Source: Kiritimatiellia bacterium
GTDB lineage: Bacteria; Verrucomicrobiota; Kiritimatiellia; RFP12; UBA1067
Assembly (NCBI GenBank): GCA_017454745.1
Contig: JAFTCL010000028.1
Location: 1 to 64,000, forward strand
Direction: 5' to 3'
Length of the DNA stretch: 64,000 nt
A program made the translations under genes and the position numbers. Positions 55,915 through 64,000 of the stretch are shown here, piece by piece. How positions within the stretch are numbered: position 1 is the stretch's first letter; every line of letters begins with the position of its first letter. The notes under the pieces are model-generated. The model was not told the origin of the DNA. It saw only the letters and a program-made list of their open reading frames with translations, and did not search any database.

Positions 55915-55990
55915 AGGGCCATAGCTCAGTTGGTAGAGCACGACACTTTTAATGTTGGGGTCGTGGGTTCGAATCCCACTGGCCCTACCA
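55915..55990 (+). tRNA. tRNA-Lys (anticodon UUU)
   Basis: The acceptor stem AGGGCCA pairs fully with TGGCCCT. D-arm GCTC-AGTTGGTA-GAGC, anticodon stem CGACA/TGTTG (one G-U) with loop CTTTTAA, so anticodon TTT, and T-arm GTGGG-TTCGAAT-CCCAC. The 3' CCA is encoded (55988-55990). 76 nt. Confidence 0.95.
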
Positions 55991-56010
55991 TTCTGCCGCT
56001 AATCTCAGGT

Positions 56011-56087
56011 CGGGCCGTAGCGCAGACTGGTAGCGCGTTTGCTTGGGGTGCAAAAGGTCTCGGGTTCAAATCCCGACGGCCCGACCA
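56011..56087 (+). tRNA. tRNA-Pro (anticodon GGG)
   Basis: The acceptor stem CGGGCCG pairs with CGGCCCG. The anticodon stem TTTGC/GCAAA encloses loop TTGGGGT, giving anticodon GGG for CCC codons. T-arm TCGGG-TTCAAAT-CCCGA; CCA is encoded. It lies 20 nt after tRNA-Lys, probably on one transcript. The sequence after it changes to accessory content, so the 3' end is a plausible integration site. Confidence 0.95.
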
Positions 56088-58435: not shown

Positions 58436-58808
58436 TCCACTGGAGAGGAAGAATGAATCTTCTTTGTGCCACTATCGTATCGTACCAGATTACGACCTGG
58501 CTTCCGCTGAAGCACTACGGTTGGTGCCTTGGCAAGCGGCTCGTCAAACGCGTGTCAGCGCATTGACTTTCAGGACGCTTTTTGGTAAATTAATTGTCAT
58601 CACAAATTGTAGTAGTTGGTAATTGCCGCTTCTGCAAAGGAGGACATCTATGATTGCTCGTTGAACAACCGAAAACGTCGGTTGCGGCACTCCCCTATGC
58701 CCTCAATGGGATGCTATTGAAAAGGGGTTTAATGGCAATCGATGCACTTCATACGATAAGAGGAGGAATACCTCATGTTTTTTTGCATCGAGGAAGTTGG
58801 TGGCTGCG
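58436..58808 (+). promoter_or_regulatory. jetB leader with two strong ribosome sites, mini-ORFs and a hairpin
   Basis: No full gene lies here. In order: a 37-codon ORF at 58453-58566 after GAGAGGAAG; AAAGGAGGA (58636-58644) followed by a four-codon ORF (58650-58664, MIAR stop); a hairpin at 58666-58684 (stem CAACCG/CGGTTG, 7-nt loop); and AGGAGG (58761-58766), 8 nt before an ATG at 58775. That ATG opens a 14-residue peptide (MFFCIEEVGGCDED) ending at 58819, overlapping the jetB start in another frame. This could be a translational-attenuation leader, the debris of a lost upstream gene, or both. No jetA-like coding sequence was found here. Confidence 0.45.
58453..58566 (+). CDS. Hypothetical 37-aa ORF upstream of jetB
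   Basis: ATG 58453 to TGA 58566, with GAGAGGAAG just upstream. It encodes MNLLCATIVSYQITTWLPLK followed by a basic tail with Lys/Arg and a His end. A hydrophobic N-terminal third could be a short membrane segment. No homology recognised. It may be a chance ORF after the SGNH gene; the ribosome site is its only support. Confidence 0.25.
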   Translation: MNLLCATIVSYQITTWLPLKHYGWCLGKRLVKRVSAH

Positions 58809-59459
58809 ATGAAGATTGAAGAATTGATTGACGGAGGGGAGCAGACGGCGCAGAACGTGCGGGCTGTTTTGAACATTCTTCTGGAATCTCCCTACTTCTA
58901 CAAGACCGACGACGAGCGGCTGTTTCTTGTCTTAATGCGGTACAAGCGCGCATTCGAGGCGTTCTTCGACAAGTTCTTCGGCTGGTCGCTTGTGATGGAC
59001 GCGAAGTGCGCCAGGCTCTACAAGCCGAAGTGGTTCAACGAGAAGATCACGCTGCCGAACCGCGACATGTTCACCTTCACGAAGCGCGACGACTGCATGG
59101 CGTTCCTGCTGGTCCTTGAGTTTTTCGAGCGCGAATGCCGCGAACAGGGCGTGACGGCAGACGACCGCGACAACCTGCGCTATCGCTTCGGTGACCTTCT
59201 GGAATATGCGGCGGTGCGTTTCCGCGCACTCATGACCGGAAAAGAGGAGAACTACACCGACGAGCGCGTACGGCAGATTCTGAAAGGAATCATGCCCCAA
59301 TTGGAGAAGTACCGCTTCCTCCGCAAGGTCAAGCCCTCCGCCGACGATAACGTGAGCGAAGCCGAGACAATCTTCGAGTGTCTTCCCGCAATGTGGCACT
59401 ACCAGGCGGCCCAGCTCGCCCAGGGCATGGAAGCCAACGGGAAGGAGGTTACAGAATGA
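58809..59459 (+). CDS. jetB: Wadjet JetB-like subunit (KITE/MukE-MksE-type)
   Basis: A 216-aa protein starting at ATG 58809 (MKIEELIDGGEQTAQN); GTG 58800 and TTG 58797 are in-frame alternatives. Winged-helix features: 'NVRAVLNILLESPYFYKTDD', 'FEAFFDKFFGWSLVMDAKCARLYK' and 'YRFGDLLEYAAVRFRAL', matching the JetB/DUF4194-like pattern of two winged helices that bind the kleisin. Its stop overlaps the jetC start (ATGA). In Wadjet systems JetB joins JetA (kleisin) and JetC (SMC) in a loop-extruding complex that detects small circular DNA. The upstream JetA gene is absent here. The assignment rests on context and fold pattern; primary sequence similarity is modest. Confidence 0.72.
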   Translation: MKIEELIDGGEQTAQNVRAVLNILLESPYFYKTDDERLFLVLMRYKRAFEAFFDKFFGWSLVMDAKCARLYKPKWFNEKITLPNRDMFTFTKRDDCMAFLLVLEFFERECREQGVTADDRDNLRYRFGDLLEYAAVRFRALMTGKEENYTDERVRQILKGIMPQLEKYRFLRKVKPSADDNVSEAETIFECLPAMWHYQAAQLAQGMEANGKEVTE

Positions 59460-62400
59460 AGCCGCGCGAAATGTATCGGATCACCGCCGTGAGGCTGGTG
59501 GAGTTCCACAACCTCGGGACGACGACGATTGAAATCCCCGAAGGCGGGCATCTGTTCCTTCTTGGCGACAACGGCTCCGGCAAGACGACGATTCTCGACG
59601 CAATCCATCTCGTGCTGACTGCCGGACGCGAAATGGAATTCAATTCCGCCGCGCGCGTCGCGGGCGCGAAAGACTCCGGCGGACGCACAATTCAGGGCAT
59701 CGTGCTTCGGTACAATGCCGTCACGGGCAAGACCGCGCGCGAGGCCGGCATCACGTATGCCGCCGTTGAACTGCGTTCGGACGCGGGACGCGTCTGCTCG
59801 CTCGCCGTCGGGCTCTCCGCCAGCGGCATGGACGTTGCCTACGAACGATGGGGAGGCATCGCGTCTGTACCGGTCGCCGAGTTACCACTGACCGTTGAGG
59901 AGAATGGCCGTCTTCGCGCTTCAAGGCAAGGGGAATTCAAGGTCGGCATGGCTTCGCTCGCGGGCGGGAAATACTTTGCCCACATCAACGATTATGCCGA
60001 TACGGTGGGGGTGCGGCTCTTCGGTGGCGAGGCGAAGTACGCCGATGTCTGCAAACTTCTCAGGACTGGCAAGGCATACCGCGAGATCGCCGCGCGCGCC
60101 GCGAACTACGACGATCTGTTTCGGCAGCTTCTGGAAGATCCGAGCCGGGACACGTTCGAGCCGCTTCTGAAGGGCTTGCGGGAGATCGAGGAAAGCAAGG
60201 GGAAACTCGATCAAATCGACGAACGGGCCACGTATCTTGACGAACTGAGGCGCGAGTCCGAGCGCCTTGGGAAACTGCGGGTGAAGGCGGATGTCACATC
60301 CTGGTGCGAAGAGTCGCGTAAGCGCGCAGAGGCCGAGCGCGCGGTGCAATCGCTGTCCGAGGCGGAGTCCGGCGGGAAGGCCGTGCTTGCCGCAGCCGAA
60401 CGCGAATGGGCGGCGATCAAGGGCGAGGCCGCGAGGTTGCGCGAGCGGCTTGCGGAACTTCGCGCAAAGGACAAGACCGGTCTCATCGACCGCGAGAAGG
60501 CGTCCGCTCAGCGTTTCGCGGAGGCGGATCGCAAGGCGGTTGAGGCGGAACGAACCTACGCCGAGGCGAGGCAGATGGCGGACGCCGCCGAGAAGGCGGA
60601 GAAGGATGCGCGCGCAAAACGCGGCACGGCACTCAGGAAATGCGCGGACGACCTCATCGCCGCCGGCAAGTCGGCGAACTTCGCCGTTGGCGGCGTCGCC
60701 GATGCGCTGTATGGTGTCAAGGATGATTTTGCGGATGTCTTCGCCGAGGCGAACGCCAAGGTCGCGGCGGAGCGGGAAGCGCGTTCAAATGCGGCGTTTC
60801 GCACGCGCGAGGTGGCCGATGCGGCCGTGCGCGAGACGGATGCGCGGCGTGCGGAACTGGATGCGATTCGCGCGCGTGGCGAGAACTTGCCGGAGGTGGT
60901 GGGTTTCGAGGCGGCGCGCGCAGAGATCCGTTCGCAGATGCTCGGGGCGCGTCCTGTCTATGAACTGCTGGAGCCGGCTTCCGGGTGCGACGCTCGGCAT
61001 CTGGCGCTCTTGGAGCGACTTGCCGGCGACGAGTTCCTGGCGACATGGATGGTGAGACCCGAAGAGGCCGATCAGGTGCGACGAATCGCGTGGCGGTCTC
61101 AGCTGGCAACGGACAAGATGTCCGTTGTCCCAGTATGCAACGGGCGAGACGCCCGTTGTCCCAGTATCGCCGTGCGGGGAGAGGCCGGCGACGTGTCGGT
61201 GAATGATGTCGCACCGTGGTTGGGAAAGTATATTTCGTTCGAGCCCGGGGGATCGGATGTCGAGGCGATTGGCCTCTTGGCGCGGCATCTTGCGGCGAAG
61301 GTCGGGCCTGCCGACGGGGATTTCCTTTCGCAGAAGACGTGGCTTTTCAGGGGACGCGAGGGGGTGGCTTCGTCCGCGAAACCGCGCCTCATCGGACGCA
61401 AAGCGCGAGAGGCGGAGCAGGCTCGGCTCGAAAAAGCGGCGGAGGCACGGCTTGCCGAAGCGGAGAAGGCGCAGAAGGCGGCGGAGAAAAGTGCTTCGTC
61501 CAGTGCAGACGCGCTTGCGCGTCTGAAGCAACTGGAGAATTCGCTTGCCGCTGCGCGCGATGCCGCATGGCGCGAGGCGGATGCTGTACGTGACGCGGCG
61601 GGCGAAGCGAAGCGGGCGACGGAACGTGCCACGCTTGAAGGCAACGCGGCGCGTGAGCGTCGGGGGGATGCGGACGCAGCGCACGAGGAACTGGAGGACA
61701 TCCGCGTGAAGATGCGCGCGGCGGGAATCGACGGCTCGCTTGAAAAGCGCATAGCATCCGCCGAGAAGGCCGTGCGCGTGAAAGAATCCGAGGCGGATGA
61801 GAAGAGGCTCGAGATCGGCGGCGTGCGCGGCAAGCTGGAGGGACTTGCCAAGGCCCGCGAGGCGAAGGAAAACGAGGCCACCGCCGCAACTGCGCGGGCA
61901 GAGACGTTTAAGGCCCGATTCGCAGCGCACGTTCCAGAAGGGACGGAAATTGATGCGTTTGCGGCGGCGGAGTGTCCGCAATGCGTGGAAGAGGGTGCGG
62001 ACTTCGTGGCTCTCAGTAAACAGTTCGCGGAGGAGGCCGGTGCGGCGGCGGAGAAGATCGAGCAGCGCGTCCGCGACCAGAAAGGCGAGGCGTATGCGTT
62101 CTCGTTCGACAGGGCGGCGAATACGATCACGGACAGACGGGGGAGTCCGCTTGCGGACGTCCTGCAGGACGAGAAGCGGCGGCTTGACGAGCTGCGCGGC
62201 GTTCTTGACCAGAAGAGCCGCGAGGTGTTCGAGCGCATCTTCATGGGCGAGGTGATGCGACGGCTGTACATGGACCTCCTGCGCATTACCGACCTCACGG
62301 GACGCATACAACGCAAGCTCGCGGGACGGCGATTCGGGTCGAACCGCTATGCGTTCGCGATCACGCCCGTGCCGGAATACGAGCATTTCGTCGAACTTGT

Positions 62401-62986
62401 CCGAAAAGGGTATGCGCTCGACTCCGGCGGCGAGAAGGACGAATTACGCGACTATCTTGCGCAGCACCGCGAGGAGATACTCAACGCGGAGATCGATGCA
62501 ATCCCCGAAATCTTCGATTACCGCAGATGGTTCCGCTTCGAGCTGAAGGTCGTGACGGAGAACGAGGAAGGGCGCGTCATCGACCGCAAGGTGAAGAGCA
62601 TGGGATCCGGAGGCGAACAGGCCGTGCCGAACTATCTCCTGATTCTCACGGTCGCCGAGTTCCTGTACCATGGCGGGGACGGCACGGAGCCGCCGAAGGC
62701 TTCGCCGATTCTCTTCGACGAGGCGTTCTACGGAATCGACGCGGCGCGGCGCGACCAGCTTCTGGCGTTTGCGGACGATCTCGGACTTCAGCTCTTCGTC
62801 TCGTCGCCCGACCAGGACGGCGTGAAGCGCGAAATCAGGCATTCCGTTTCCCTCATCGTGATCAAGGACGAGAACCTCGACGTGCATCTCACGCCCGTCA
62901 TCTGGCGCAACACGCCTACCCAGACCGACCTCCTGGGCGGCGACTCGCCAGATGTCGGCATGACGGTCAAGGAGGAGACAAGGTGA
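59456..62986 (+). CDS. jetC: Wadjet JetC-like SMC/MukB-type ATPase
   Basis: A 1,176-aa SMC-like motor starting at ATG 59456, with GAAGGAGG 6 nt upstream. Walker A GDNGSGKTT (37-45), then two long charged coiled-coil arms (about residues 230-460 and 655-900) around a central hinge-like region. The ABC signature SGGEQ lies near residue 1050 and Walker B 'PILFDEAFYGID' near 1084-1095, followed by a D-loop. All ATPase motifs are intact. In Wadjet it dimerises, extrudes DNA and presents plasmids to JetD for cleavage. Residues ~551-571 are encoded by two tandem palindromic repeat units, probably an insertion in the hinge region (see findings). Coupled to jetB by ATGA and to the next small ORF by GTGA. 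Confidence 0.85.
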   Translation: MKPREMYRITAVRLVEFHNLGTTTIEIPEGGHLFLLGDNGSGKTTILDAIHLVLTAGREMEFNSAARVAGAKDSGGRTIQGIVLRYNAVTGKTAREAGITYAAVELRSDAGRVCSLAVGLSASGMDVAYERWGGIASVPVAELPLTVEENGRLRASRQGEFKVGMASLAGGKYFAHINDYADTVGVRLFGGEAKYADVCKLLRTGKAYREIAARAANYDDLFRQLLEDPSRDTFEPLLKGLREIEESKGKLDQIDERATYLDELRRESERLGKLRVKADVTSWCEESRKRAEAERAVQSLSEAESGGKAVLAAAEREWAAIKGEAARLRERLAELRAKDKTGLIDREKASAQRFAEADRKAVEAERTYAEARQMADAAEKAEKDARAKRGTALRKCADDLIAAGKSANFAVGGVADALYGVKDDFADVFAEANAKVAAEREARSNAAFRTREVADAAVRETDARRAELDAIRARGENLPEVVGFEAARAEIRSQMLGARPVYELLEPASGCDARHLALLERLAGDEFLATWMVRPEEADQVRRIAWRSQLATDKMSVVPVCNGRDARCPSIAVRGEAGDVSVNDVAPWLGKYISFEPGGSDVEAIGLLARHLAAKVGPADGDFLSQKTWLFRGREGVASSAKPRLIGRKAREAEQARLEKAAEARLAEAEKAQKAAEKSASSSADALARLKQLENSLAAARDAAWREADAVRDAAGEAKRATERATLEGNAARERRGDADAAHEELEDIRVKMRAAGIDGSLEKRIASAEKAVRVKESEADEKRLEIGGVRGKLEGLAKAREAKENEATAATARAETFKARFAAHVPEGTEIDAFAAAECPQCVEEGADFVALSKQFAEEAGAAAEKIEQRVRDQKGEAYAFSFDRAANTITDRRGSPLADVLQDEKRRLDELRGVLDQKSREVFERIFMGEVMRRLYMDLLRITDLTGRIQRKLAGRRFGSNRYAFAITPVPEYEHFVELVRKGYALDSGGEKDELRDYLAQHREEILNAEIDAIPEIFDYRRWFRFELKVVTENEEGRVIDRKVKSMGSGGEQAVPNYLLILTVAEFLYHGGDGTEPPKASPILFDEAFYGIDAARRDQLLAFADDLGLQLFVSSPDQDGVKREIRHSVSLIVIKDENLDVHLTPVIWRNTPTQTDLLGGDSPDVGMTVKEETR
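61107..61168 (+). repeat. Two tandem 31-bp palindromic (REP-like) units inside jetC
   Basis: Unit 1 (61107-61137) is CAACGGACA-AGA-TGTCCGTTG followed by TCCCAGTATG. Unit 2 (61138-61168) is CAACGGGCG-AGA-CGCCCGTTG followed by TCCCAGTATC. Each has a perfect 9-bp stem, the same AGA loop and the same tail. The stems differ in their inner 3 bases but covary. They lie in frame in jetC without introducing a stop. REP-like sequences are normally intergenic, so a coding location is unusual. Confidence 0.85.
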
Positions 62987-63102
62987 ACAAATTACAGGCA
63001 AAAGCGGCAGATATGATACTGGACGAGGCTGTTTCGTTCATAAAATGTGGCCCTTACGGCAAAAGTTCGTTCATAAAATGTGATACCATGTGGTGTAGAT
63101 GA
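62983..63102 (+). CDS. Small 39-aa ORF coupled to jetC, with internal repeat
   Basis: GTG 62983 overlaps the jetC stop (GTGA) and AAGGAGGA lies 6-7 nt upstream, a typical coupled start. The protein begins VNKLQAKAADMILDEAV. It contains an 11-residue spacing repeat, SFIKCGPYGKS then SFIKC, and ends in CDTMWCR. Three Cys are present in the last ~22 residues. The repeat is also a DNA repeat (63033-63049 and 63066-63082). No family recognised; it may be an accessory micro-protein or the truncated start of a lost gene. Confidence 0.45.
   Translation: MNKLQAKAADMILDEAVSFIKCGPYGKSSFIKCDTMWCR
63033..63082 (+). repeat. Perfect 17-bp direct repeat between jetC and jetD
   Basis: TTCGTTCATAAAATGTG occurs at 63033-63049 and 63066-63082, 33 bp apart (11 codons, about three helical turns). 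It lies inside the 39-codon ORF and upstream of the next SD. It could be an operator, a recombination scar or simple in-frame duplication. Confidence 0.7.
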
Positions 63103-63144: not shown

Positions 63145-63249
63145 ATGATAACGAACAAGATGACAAGGGCCGATGTCGAGGCCGTGCTGGCCGACGGAGG
63201 CAGTTGGACTTGCGATGTTCGCGAAGCGGCGGACGAGGAAATGAAGTGA
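63145..63249 (+). CDS. Small 34-aa ORF coupled to jetD
   Basis: ATG 63145 follows AAAAGGAGA by 4-5 nt and runs to a TGA that overlaps the jetD ATG (TGATG at 63247-63251). The peptide begins MITNKMTRADVEAVLADGGS, then WTCDVREAADEEMK, and is acidic. Its strong ribosome site and the stop-start overlap suggest that ribosomes reach jetD through it. No homology recognised. Either a real small protein or a coupling leader. Confidence 0.45.
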   Translation: MITNKMTRADVEAVLADGGSWTCDVREAADEEMK

Positions 63250-64000
63250 TGATGACGAAGGTGGAGATTGCGGCTGCGGTGGAGCGGGTGCCAGAGGTGA
63301 AACCGGTGCTGGCAAAACTGGCCGGCAAGATGGCGCGTGGCGTCGCGCTGCCGGCGCAGTTCTCGGAGAAAAACCTTTCCTACGCCGCGCAGCGGGAACT
63401 GGAAGTGCTTTGGTGCGTCGCCGGGAAGCGAATGTCGGATGGACGCGTGTCGTTTCCGCTCCCGGAGGGACTGCTTGTTCAGTCCGCGTGGCGTGGTGCG
63501 ATGGAATATTTCGGCATTGACTTGCCCGAGGCTTCTGCGGACGACGAGGATGTCTTTGCGAGGCTGAAGCTGCTTGTGCCATACAGCGATTGGTACGTTG
63601 ACAGAATCGCATCGAGCGAAGAGGTTCGCCGATTCGCGTCAAGACCGGAAAACAGGCATGATTGGTTGACTCTCGCCAAAGGTGTACTTGAGCGCCTTCT
63701 TGGCGGATGCCTTCCCGCTACGACACTGTCCCAACTCGGGTCAGACTGGTTCGGCGACAGCAAGAAAATCAGAACCGGCGCACTGCGCCGCCAGCTTGTC
63801 GCCATATACGGCGCAATCCTGAACATATCGCCCGACGAAGAATCCAGATTGCTGGACGGCTTCGGTATCGCGGCCAACCCTTATACAAGCTGCGTGACTT
63901 TCTGCGCTCCGCTGACATTTAAGATTGATGAAGAGACATTTGACTTCCCGCTGAAACTCTATGAAAAGAGAATGGCGTGCCAGCTGCCGCTTGAGACCGT
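63249..64000 (+). CDS. jetD: Wadjet JetD-like nuclease, N-terminal part (runs off right edge)
   Basis: About 250 codons from ATG 63249 (MMTKVEIAAAVERVPEV); no stop in the window. The N-terminal ~200 residues are helical, with 'YAAQRELEVLWCVAGKRMSDG' and 'RFASRPENRHDWLTLAKGVLERLL'. Then 'SQLGSDWFGDSKKIR' and 'LLDGFGIAANPYTSCVTF' resemble the linker between the arm domain and Toprim domain of JetD (DSK-x-L/I, then ENP). The catalytic Toprim part should lie just beyond position 64000. JetD cleaves plasmid DNA held by JetABC. The assignment is supported mostly by operon context. Confidence 0.65.
   Translation, partial: MMTKVEIAAAVERVPEVKPVLAKLAGKMARGVALPAQFSEKNLSYAAQRELEVLWCVAGKRMSDGRVSFPLPEGLLVQSAWRGAMEYFGIDLPEASADDEDVFARLKLLVPYSDWYVDRIASSEEVRRFASRPENRHDWLTLAKGVLERLLGGCLPATTLSQLGSDWFGDSKKIRTGALRRQLVAIYGAILNISPDEESRLLDGFGIAANPYTSCVTFCAPLTFKIDEETFDFPLKLYEKRMACQLPLET

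What the first reader, a model, noticed from the sequence alone, without database searches (positions are those of the whole stretch)
61107..61168. REP-like palindrome pair inserted in frame into the SMC hinge region of JetC
Two 31-bp units with perfect 9-bp stems, identical AGA loops and identical TCCCAGTAT tails sit back to back inside an open reading frame that continues into intact ATPase motifs. The stem sequences covary between units, which is what selection on hairpin structure rather than on protein produces. At 62 bp the pair is not a multiple of three, so flanking sequence must have been gained or lost to keep the frame. This suggests a transposable REP-like family that can enter genes, and here it altered a defence protein in its middle.
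Basis: seen in the sequence. Interest (0 to 1): 0.72.

Follow-up and report, generated by a model that had tools for sequence, protein, structure and literature searches.

The report
REP palindrome pair inside JetC hinge
A 62-base pair of mobile hairpin repeats has jumped, without breaking the reading frame, into a flexible loop of an anti-plasmid defence protein, and because the repeat is found nowhere else in this genome but is common in related bacteria, it works as a fingerprint of where the defence gene came from.

Summary
Two tandem 31-bp units (61106-61136, 61137-61167) lie inside an intact jetC (59456-62986) of a Wadjet operon. Relatives show a real insertion: the 88%-identical orthologue has an empty site (17 nt where this gene has 68; net +51 nt). 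The loop is 7-9 residues in 61 of 65 diverse JetCs and 25 here. AlphaFold (pLDDT 94) places it as a poorly ordered loop of the SMC hinge.

The unit belongs to a REP-like family (stem covariation 0/500 shuffles) with up to 127 copies in sister genera, often inside genes and in frame. In this genome it occurs only here, and there is no cognate RAYT. In two related genomes a RAYT flanked by the same repeats sits in frame inside a uronate isomerase. Two other JetCs carry inverted pairs of GTAG-tagged REPs in the same loop; those families too are rare or absent elsewhere in their hosts but common in a genus-g15 genome.

Best reading: REP pairs inserted into a permissive hinge loop in REP-rich donors, then Wadjet moved by horizontal transfer. 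Intragenic REPs are known (Opitutus, Rickettsia), so this is a new family of a known kind. Mobilisation by the RAYT and any effect on JetC function are inferred.

The parts
61106..61136 (+). REP-like unit 1: GCAACGGACAAGATGTCCGTTGTCCCAGTAT (9-bp stem, AGA loop, GTCCCAGT tail); encodes JetC 551-561 ATDKMSVVPVC
   Evidence: stem type also found in other genomes
61137..61167 (+). REP-like unit 2: GCAACGGGCGAGACGCCCGTTGTCCCAGTAT; its first 28 nt from the C equal the family consensus; encodes JetC 561-571 CNGRDARCPSI, read one frame on from unit 1
61100..61167 (+). whole segment that replaces 17 nt of the empty site (net +51 nt)
   Evidence: alignment with L016/G106, 88% identical JetC
59456..62986 (+). 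jetC, Wadjet SMC-like ATPase, 1176 aa, intact, insert in a hinge loop
   Evidence: dN/dS about 0.2 against G030 and G106
58797..59459 (+). jetB (MukE/MksE-like)
63249..64000 (+). jetD, runs off the window to contig position 64475; jetA follows at contig 64472-66028 (order B-C-D-A)

Best explanation
The feature is a tandem pair of REP-like elements (on the other strand 5'-ACTGGGA[C/G]-AACGGGCG-TCT-CGCCCGTT-[G/C]) lodged in frame in a variable loop of the JetC hinge. Shown: it is a lineage-specific insertion of net 17 codons; the unit belongs to a multi-copy family whose stem is kept by compensatory changes; the family lives in sister genera, often inside genes, and its consensus is open in all six frames; the same loop holds inserts of other REP families in two other JetCs; and each of these inserts is an orphan or nearly so in its host genome but belongs to a family common in a genus-g15 genome. 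Inferred: the unit spreads as a non-autonomous element moved by a single-strand-acting RAYT of the kind found flanked by it in G043 and G038; selection removed out-of-frame or damaging events and left inserts in a flexible loop; and the Wadjet operon with its insert was later transferred from a REP-rich, g15-like donor into this genome. The insert is most likely near neutral for JetC.
For: Empty sites and loop length: (loop 7-9 aa in 61 of 65 JetCs; 25 here, 26 in L013). Family: 38 of 114 genomes of the taxonomic family match within 2 mismatches; 127, 107, 103 and 76 copies in G036, G039, G030 and G035; 2 here; 0 in congener G105; 5 of 288 genomes drawn across the phylum, all in the same family. 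Covariation: (7 of 9 pairs change on both sides; score 0.318 against 0.130; 0/500 shuffles). Same tandem elsewhere: (G043, 55 of 62 identical, gapless). Other genes hit in frame: LolD-type ABC ATPase, RNA polymerase beta-like gene with empty sites in relatives, glycoside hydrolases, UxaC. RAYT: (best PDB match TnpA_REP 4er8). Hinge loop. Transfer: JetC identity disagrees with genus: g15 G030 is 86% identical to this JetC but 74% to g15 G042; copies in G030: 103, 19 and 26. Precedent: PMC3733652.
Against: 28 other related RAYT loci, and 20 Y1_Tnp neighbourhoods in this genome and element-rich genomes, have no copy of the unit near them, and REP-rich G036 and G039 have no hit to this RAYT clade, so the RAYT link rests on two genomes. 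No target-site duplication or fixed boundary could be read. No donor with the identical jetC insert was found; the donor is inferred from family abundance. The genome is a draft (83 contigs, 92% complete), so a few unseen copies are possible. The three JetC inserts need not all come from one donor genus.
Confidence: 0.78

Rival explanations
1. The segment is native JetC sequence that happens to be palindromic.
For: It is open, in frame and inside an intact gene.
Against: Absent from all homologues; loop length 7-9 in 61 of 65; identical units dispersed in other genomes; stem covariation across the family.
Confidence: 0.01
2. Same element, but inserted in this genome by a local RAYT whose other products were lost or lie in missing contigs, without transfer of the Wadjet operon after insertion.
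For: One Y1_Tnp gene exists in this genome (L158); the assembly is 92% complete.
Against: That gene is not of the G043/G038 clade and has no unit near it; zero further copies here and none in congener G105; JetC identity is incongruent with genus; the two other REP-bearing JetCs show the same orphan pattern.
Confidence: 0.15
3. The loop is a REP target hot spot, or the inserts are selected because lengthening the hinge loop changes the hinge gate (for example obstacle bypass), rather than the loop being merely permissive.
For: Three different REP families and a fourth 7-codon insert at the same loop; the Wadjet hinge is a functional single-strand gate (PMC12647877).
Against: An RNA polymerase beta-like gene and UxaC show the same pattern of different inserts at one variable loop, which fits permissiveness; no functional data.
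Confidence: 0.12
4. Assembly or binning artefact: the end of contig C1 belongs to another organism.
For: The operon lies at 58.8-66.0 kb of a 66.8-kb contig, and the repeat family is otherwise absent from the genome.
Against: Complete B-C-D-A operon with an intact reading frame through the repeats; JetCs of other REP-poor genomes show the same orphan pattern.
Confidence: 0.06

Closest known systems
Intragenic REPs of Opitutus terrae and others (Di Nocera et al. 2013, PMC3733652)
   Same: Small palindromes, often dimers, inserted in coding regions and encoding 20-30 aa; also in a PVC bacterium; RAYTs known for the GTAG class.
   Different: Terminal tag here is TGGGA, neither GTAG nor CGTC; family not found described; host group is Kiritimatiellae; target is a Wadjet SMC hinge; orphan in its genome.
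Rickettsia palindromic elements (RPE) and Wolbachia protein-coding palindromic repeats (cited in PMC3733652)
   Same: Palindromic repeats inserted in frame in many unrelated proteins, presumably tolerated in surface loops.
   Different: Different sequences and hosts; the paper reports no dedicated transposase for the CGTC class that includes RPE-4/6, whereas here a RAYT flanked by the repeat was found in two genomes.
REPINs / RAYT systems (PMC3116915, PMC2817692)
   Same: Short hairpins in pairs, high copy in some genomes, RAYT flanked by the repeats in G043 and G038.
   Different: The pair in jetC is a direct tandem, not an inverted REPIN pair; copies inside genes are common; most related RAYTs are not flanked by this unit.
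GTAG-tagged REP pairs in JetC of G046 (L013) and G079 (L138)
   Same: Same hinge loop, in frame, palindromic, family orphan or nearly so in its host.
   Different: Different REP class, inverted arrangement, different sequences.

Membership tests
REP (repetitive palindrome, broad sense) | 20-40 bp palindromic unit with conserved stem | tested here: met
   9-bp stem, 3-nt loop, conserved tail, covariation 0/500 shuffles.
REP (repetitive palindrome, broad sense) | High copy number in a genome | tested here: met
   met in sister genera (up to 127 copies); not met in this genome (2 copies).
REP (repetitive palindrome, broad sense) | Mostly extragenic | tested here: inconclusive
   9 of 26 elements inside coding-like ORFs against 48% of random positions by the same rule; weak avoidance only, small sample.
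GTAG or CGTC REP superfamilies | Terminal GTAG or CGTC tetranucleotide | tested here: not met
   terminal tag is TGGGA (TCCCA on the + strand).
RAYT-associated REP | A RAYT gene flanked by the same repeat | tested here: inconclusive
   Met in G043 and G038; not seen at 28 other related RAYTs or 20 Y1_Tnp neighbourhoods; none in this genome.
REPIN | Two inverted REPs forming one long hairpin | tested here: not met
   The jetC pair is a direct tandem; inverted pairs occur in L013 and L138.
Protein-coding palindromic repeats (RPE-like) | In-frame insertion in genes with empty orthologues | tested here: met
   jetC, RNA polymerase beta-like gene and UxaC.
RAYT-associated REP | The RAYT binds, cleaves and moves the hairpin | not testable with these tools
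   Needs biochemistry.
Wadjet (JetABCD) | Four genes jetA-D together | tested here: met
   B, C, D and A in one run, order B-C-D-A; JetA match is weak (E 2e-05).

The most novel reading that the evidence does not exclude
A REP/RAYT system adapted to live inside coding sequence: units open in all six frames, pairs that keep or restore frame, and a RAYT gene that itself sits in frame inside a host enzyme gene (UxaC in G043 and G038) and would be translated as part of it. JetC inserts would be one product, spread further by transfer of defence operons.
Probability: 0.2. Interest if true: 0.75.

Novelty: new member of a known kind. Interest (0 to 1): 0.48.

Why it matters
It shows that REP insertions in a defence gene can be read as a barcode: three JetC lineages each carry a REP family that is foreign or nearly so to its host and common in a REP-rich genus, which makes traffic of Wadjet operons between rumen and gut Kiritimatiellae traceable. 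It also gives natural loop-insertion variants of an SMC hinge, a domain recently shown to be a gate for obstacle bypass, and extends intragenic REPs to a new bacterial class with a candidate transposase.

Tried and rejected
Pattern of the full tail in this genome: only the two known copies. A looser stem pattern gave four unrelated single hairpins. First look for a RAYT link: 20 Y1_Tnp neighbourhoods gave no unit, which first suggested no RAYT; reversed when L108/L196 and L202 turned out to hold a RAYT inside UxaC. Viral contigs, phage and plasmid collections: no match. Structure prediction with 13 sequences was too poor to use (pLDDT 54); with 65 sequences it was good. PDB sequence search with the hinge profile: nothing. 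Correlation of unit copy number with presence of this RAYT clade is suggestive but incomplete, so it was not used as proof. Target-site duplications could not be defined.

Full report
What is there. The window segment 61106-61167 consists of two direct 31-bp units, GCAACGGACAAGATGTCCGTTGTCCCAGTAT and GCAACGGGCGAGACGCCCGTTGTCCCAGTAT, each a perfect 9-bp stem with an AGA loop and a TCCCAGTAT tail. They lie inside an intact jetC (59456-62986, 1176 aa) of a Wadjet operon in the order B-C-D-A, which runs past the window end. The units are read in two different frames because 31 is not a multiple of three; the unit contains no stop in any of the six frames. Two such hairpins within 60 bp never occurred in 100 Markov sequences.

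It is an insertion. JetC homologues from 79 loci were fetched. In the closest, L016/G106 (88% identical), 17 nt stand where this gene has 68, a net gain of 51 nt. Between the anchors RRIAW and IAVRG, 61 of 65 diverse JetCs have 7-9 residues; this one has 25. Codon comparison gives pN/pS of about 0.21 against both G030 and G106, and the ATPase motifs are kept, so the gene looks under purifying selection; this does not date the insert.

Where it sits in the protein. A model of residues 452-668 built on 65 sequences has mean pLDDT 93.8; the only weak stretch is about residues 552-571, a loop between a long helix and a strand. Foldseek finds the JetC hinge of Neobacillus Wadjet-II (9qe0) first and MukB hinges next. 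The hinge of Wadjet is a gate for obstacle bypass (PMC12647877); whether the loop matters for that is unknown.

It is a family, but not of this genome. The whole genome holds only these two copies and the congener G105 holds none, whereas several genera of the same family hold tens to over a hundred (G036 127, G039 107, G030 103, G035 76, G038 60). Across 288 genomes drawn over the phylum only 5 match, all in the same family. Among 29 distinct units 7 of 9 stem pairs change on both sides and none of 500 shuffles reaches the observed covariation. The exact tandem with the AGTATGC spacer is found in G043, 55 of 62 bases identical without a gap.

The family lives in genes. Of 26 units sampled about one per genome, 9 lie within coding-like ORFs by a strict rule, against 48% of random positions. 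Clear cases include a LolD-type ABC ATPase, an RNA polymerase beta-like protein, glycoside hydrolases and a uronate isomerase. In the RNA polymerase-like gene G030 has a pair and G039 a longer set, G042 and G036 have a different insert, and G032, G031 and G034 are empty at the same loop, the same pattern as in jetC.

Mobility. In G043 and G038 a RAYT (Y1_Tnp, best PDB match TnpA_REP 4er8) lies in frame within UxaC and is flanked on both sides by arrays of the unit; in G043 the flanks share an identical 108-bp stretch. Orthologous UxaC genes in G030, G034, G035 and G037 lack the RAYT. This makes the RAYT the best candidate mobiliser. Against it, 28 related RAYTs elsewhere have no unit near them and this genome has no member of that RAYT clade. 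So mobilisation by RAYT is an inference, not shown.

Provenance. The same JetC loop carries an inverted pair of GTAG-tagged REPs in G046 (L013) and another in G079 (L138). The G046 family, searched for by its own pattern, occurs only at that jetC in G046 but 19 times in G030; the G079 pattern occurs only at jetC in G079, once elsewhere in G046, and 26 times in G030. With the 2-against-103 pattern of the present unit, and with JetC identities that ignore genus boundaries, the simplest account is insertion in REP-rich, g15-like donors and later transfer of the operon. The actual donor was not found.

Comparison with the known. Intragenic REPs, often dimers that encode 20-30 residues, were described in 2013, with Opitutus terrae (Verrucomicrobia) the richest for the GTAG class and Rickettsia (RPE-4, RPE-6) for the CGTC class (PMC3733652). 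The present family is neither GTAG- nor CGTC-tagged, and no description of it was found in the papers searched. It is best called a new member of a known kind; the RAYT held in frame inside UxaC is the most unusual side finding.

Noticed in passing
L196 (G043:C39) 502-2805, - strand; L202/L210 (G038:C98): A uronate isomerase (UxaC) ORF of about 750 codons holds a complete-looking RAYT domain in frame, flanked by arrays of the palindromic unit; orthologues in four relatives lack it.
   Followed up: partly
L239-L243, L199 (G030:C19), L106 (G041:C372): A divergent RNA polymerase with beta-like (and, in L106, beta-prime-like ADFDGDEM) motifs in one open frame of about 1640-1680 codons in several g15 genomes; it looks like a beta/beta-prime fusion and collects in-frame repeats.
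   Followed up: no
UxaC alignment (L255, L245, L256, L196): Other short repeat-like peptides (HKDHKEHKDELFTNDNCHNCSQ and HTEAQRHRGG) are inserted in frame at variable loops of the same gene in several species, which suggests further intragenic repeat families.
   Followed up: no
L009, L012, L025, L054 at the same JetC loop: A shared 7-codon insert (ATTSGQQQGV type) at the REP site, possibly a decayed element.
   Followed up: partly
window 63030-63085: Direct repeat TTCATAAAATGTG twice in the jetC-jetD gap; looks like a small regulatory or recombination site.
   Followed up: no
window 55915-56087: tRNA-Lys and tRNA-Pro lie about 2.7 kb upstream of the Wadjet operon, a usual kind of integration landmark.
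   Followed up: no
L016/L137 (G106:C52): The closest jetC orthologue is broken near codon 240-333 by a frame change, so it may be a pseudogene or an assembly error.
   Followed up: no
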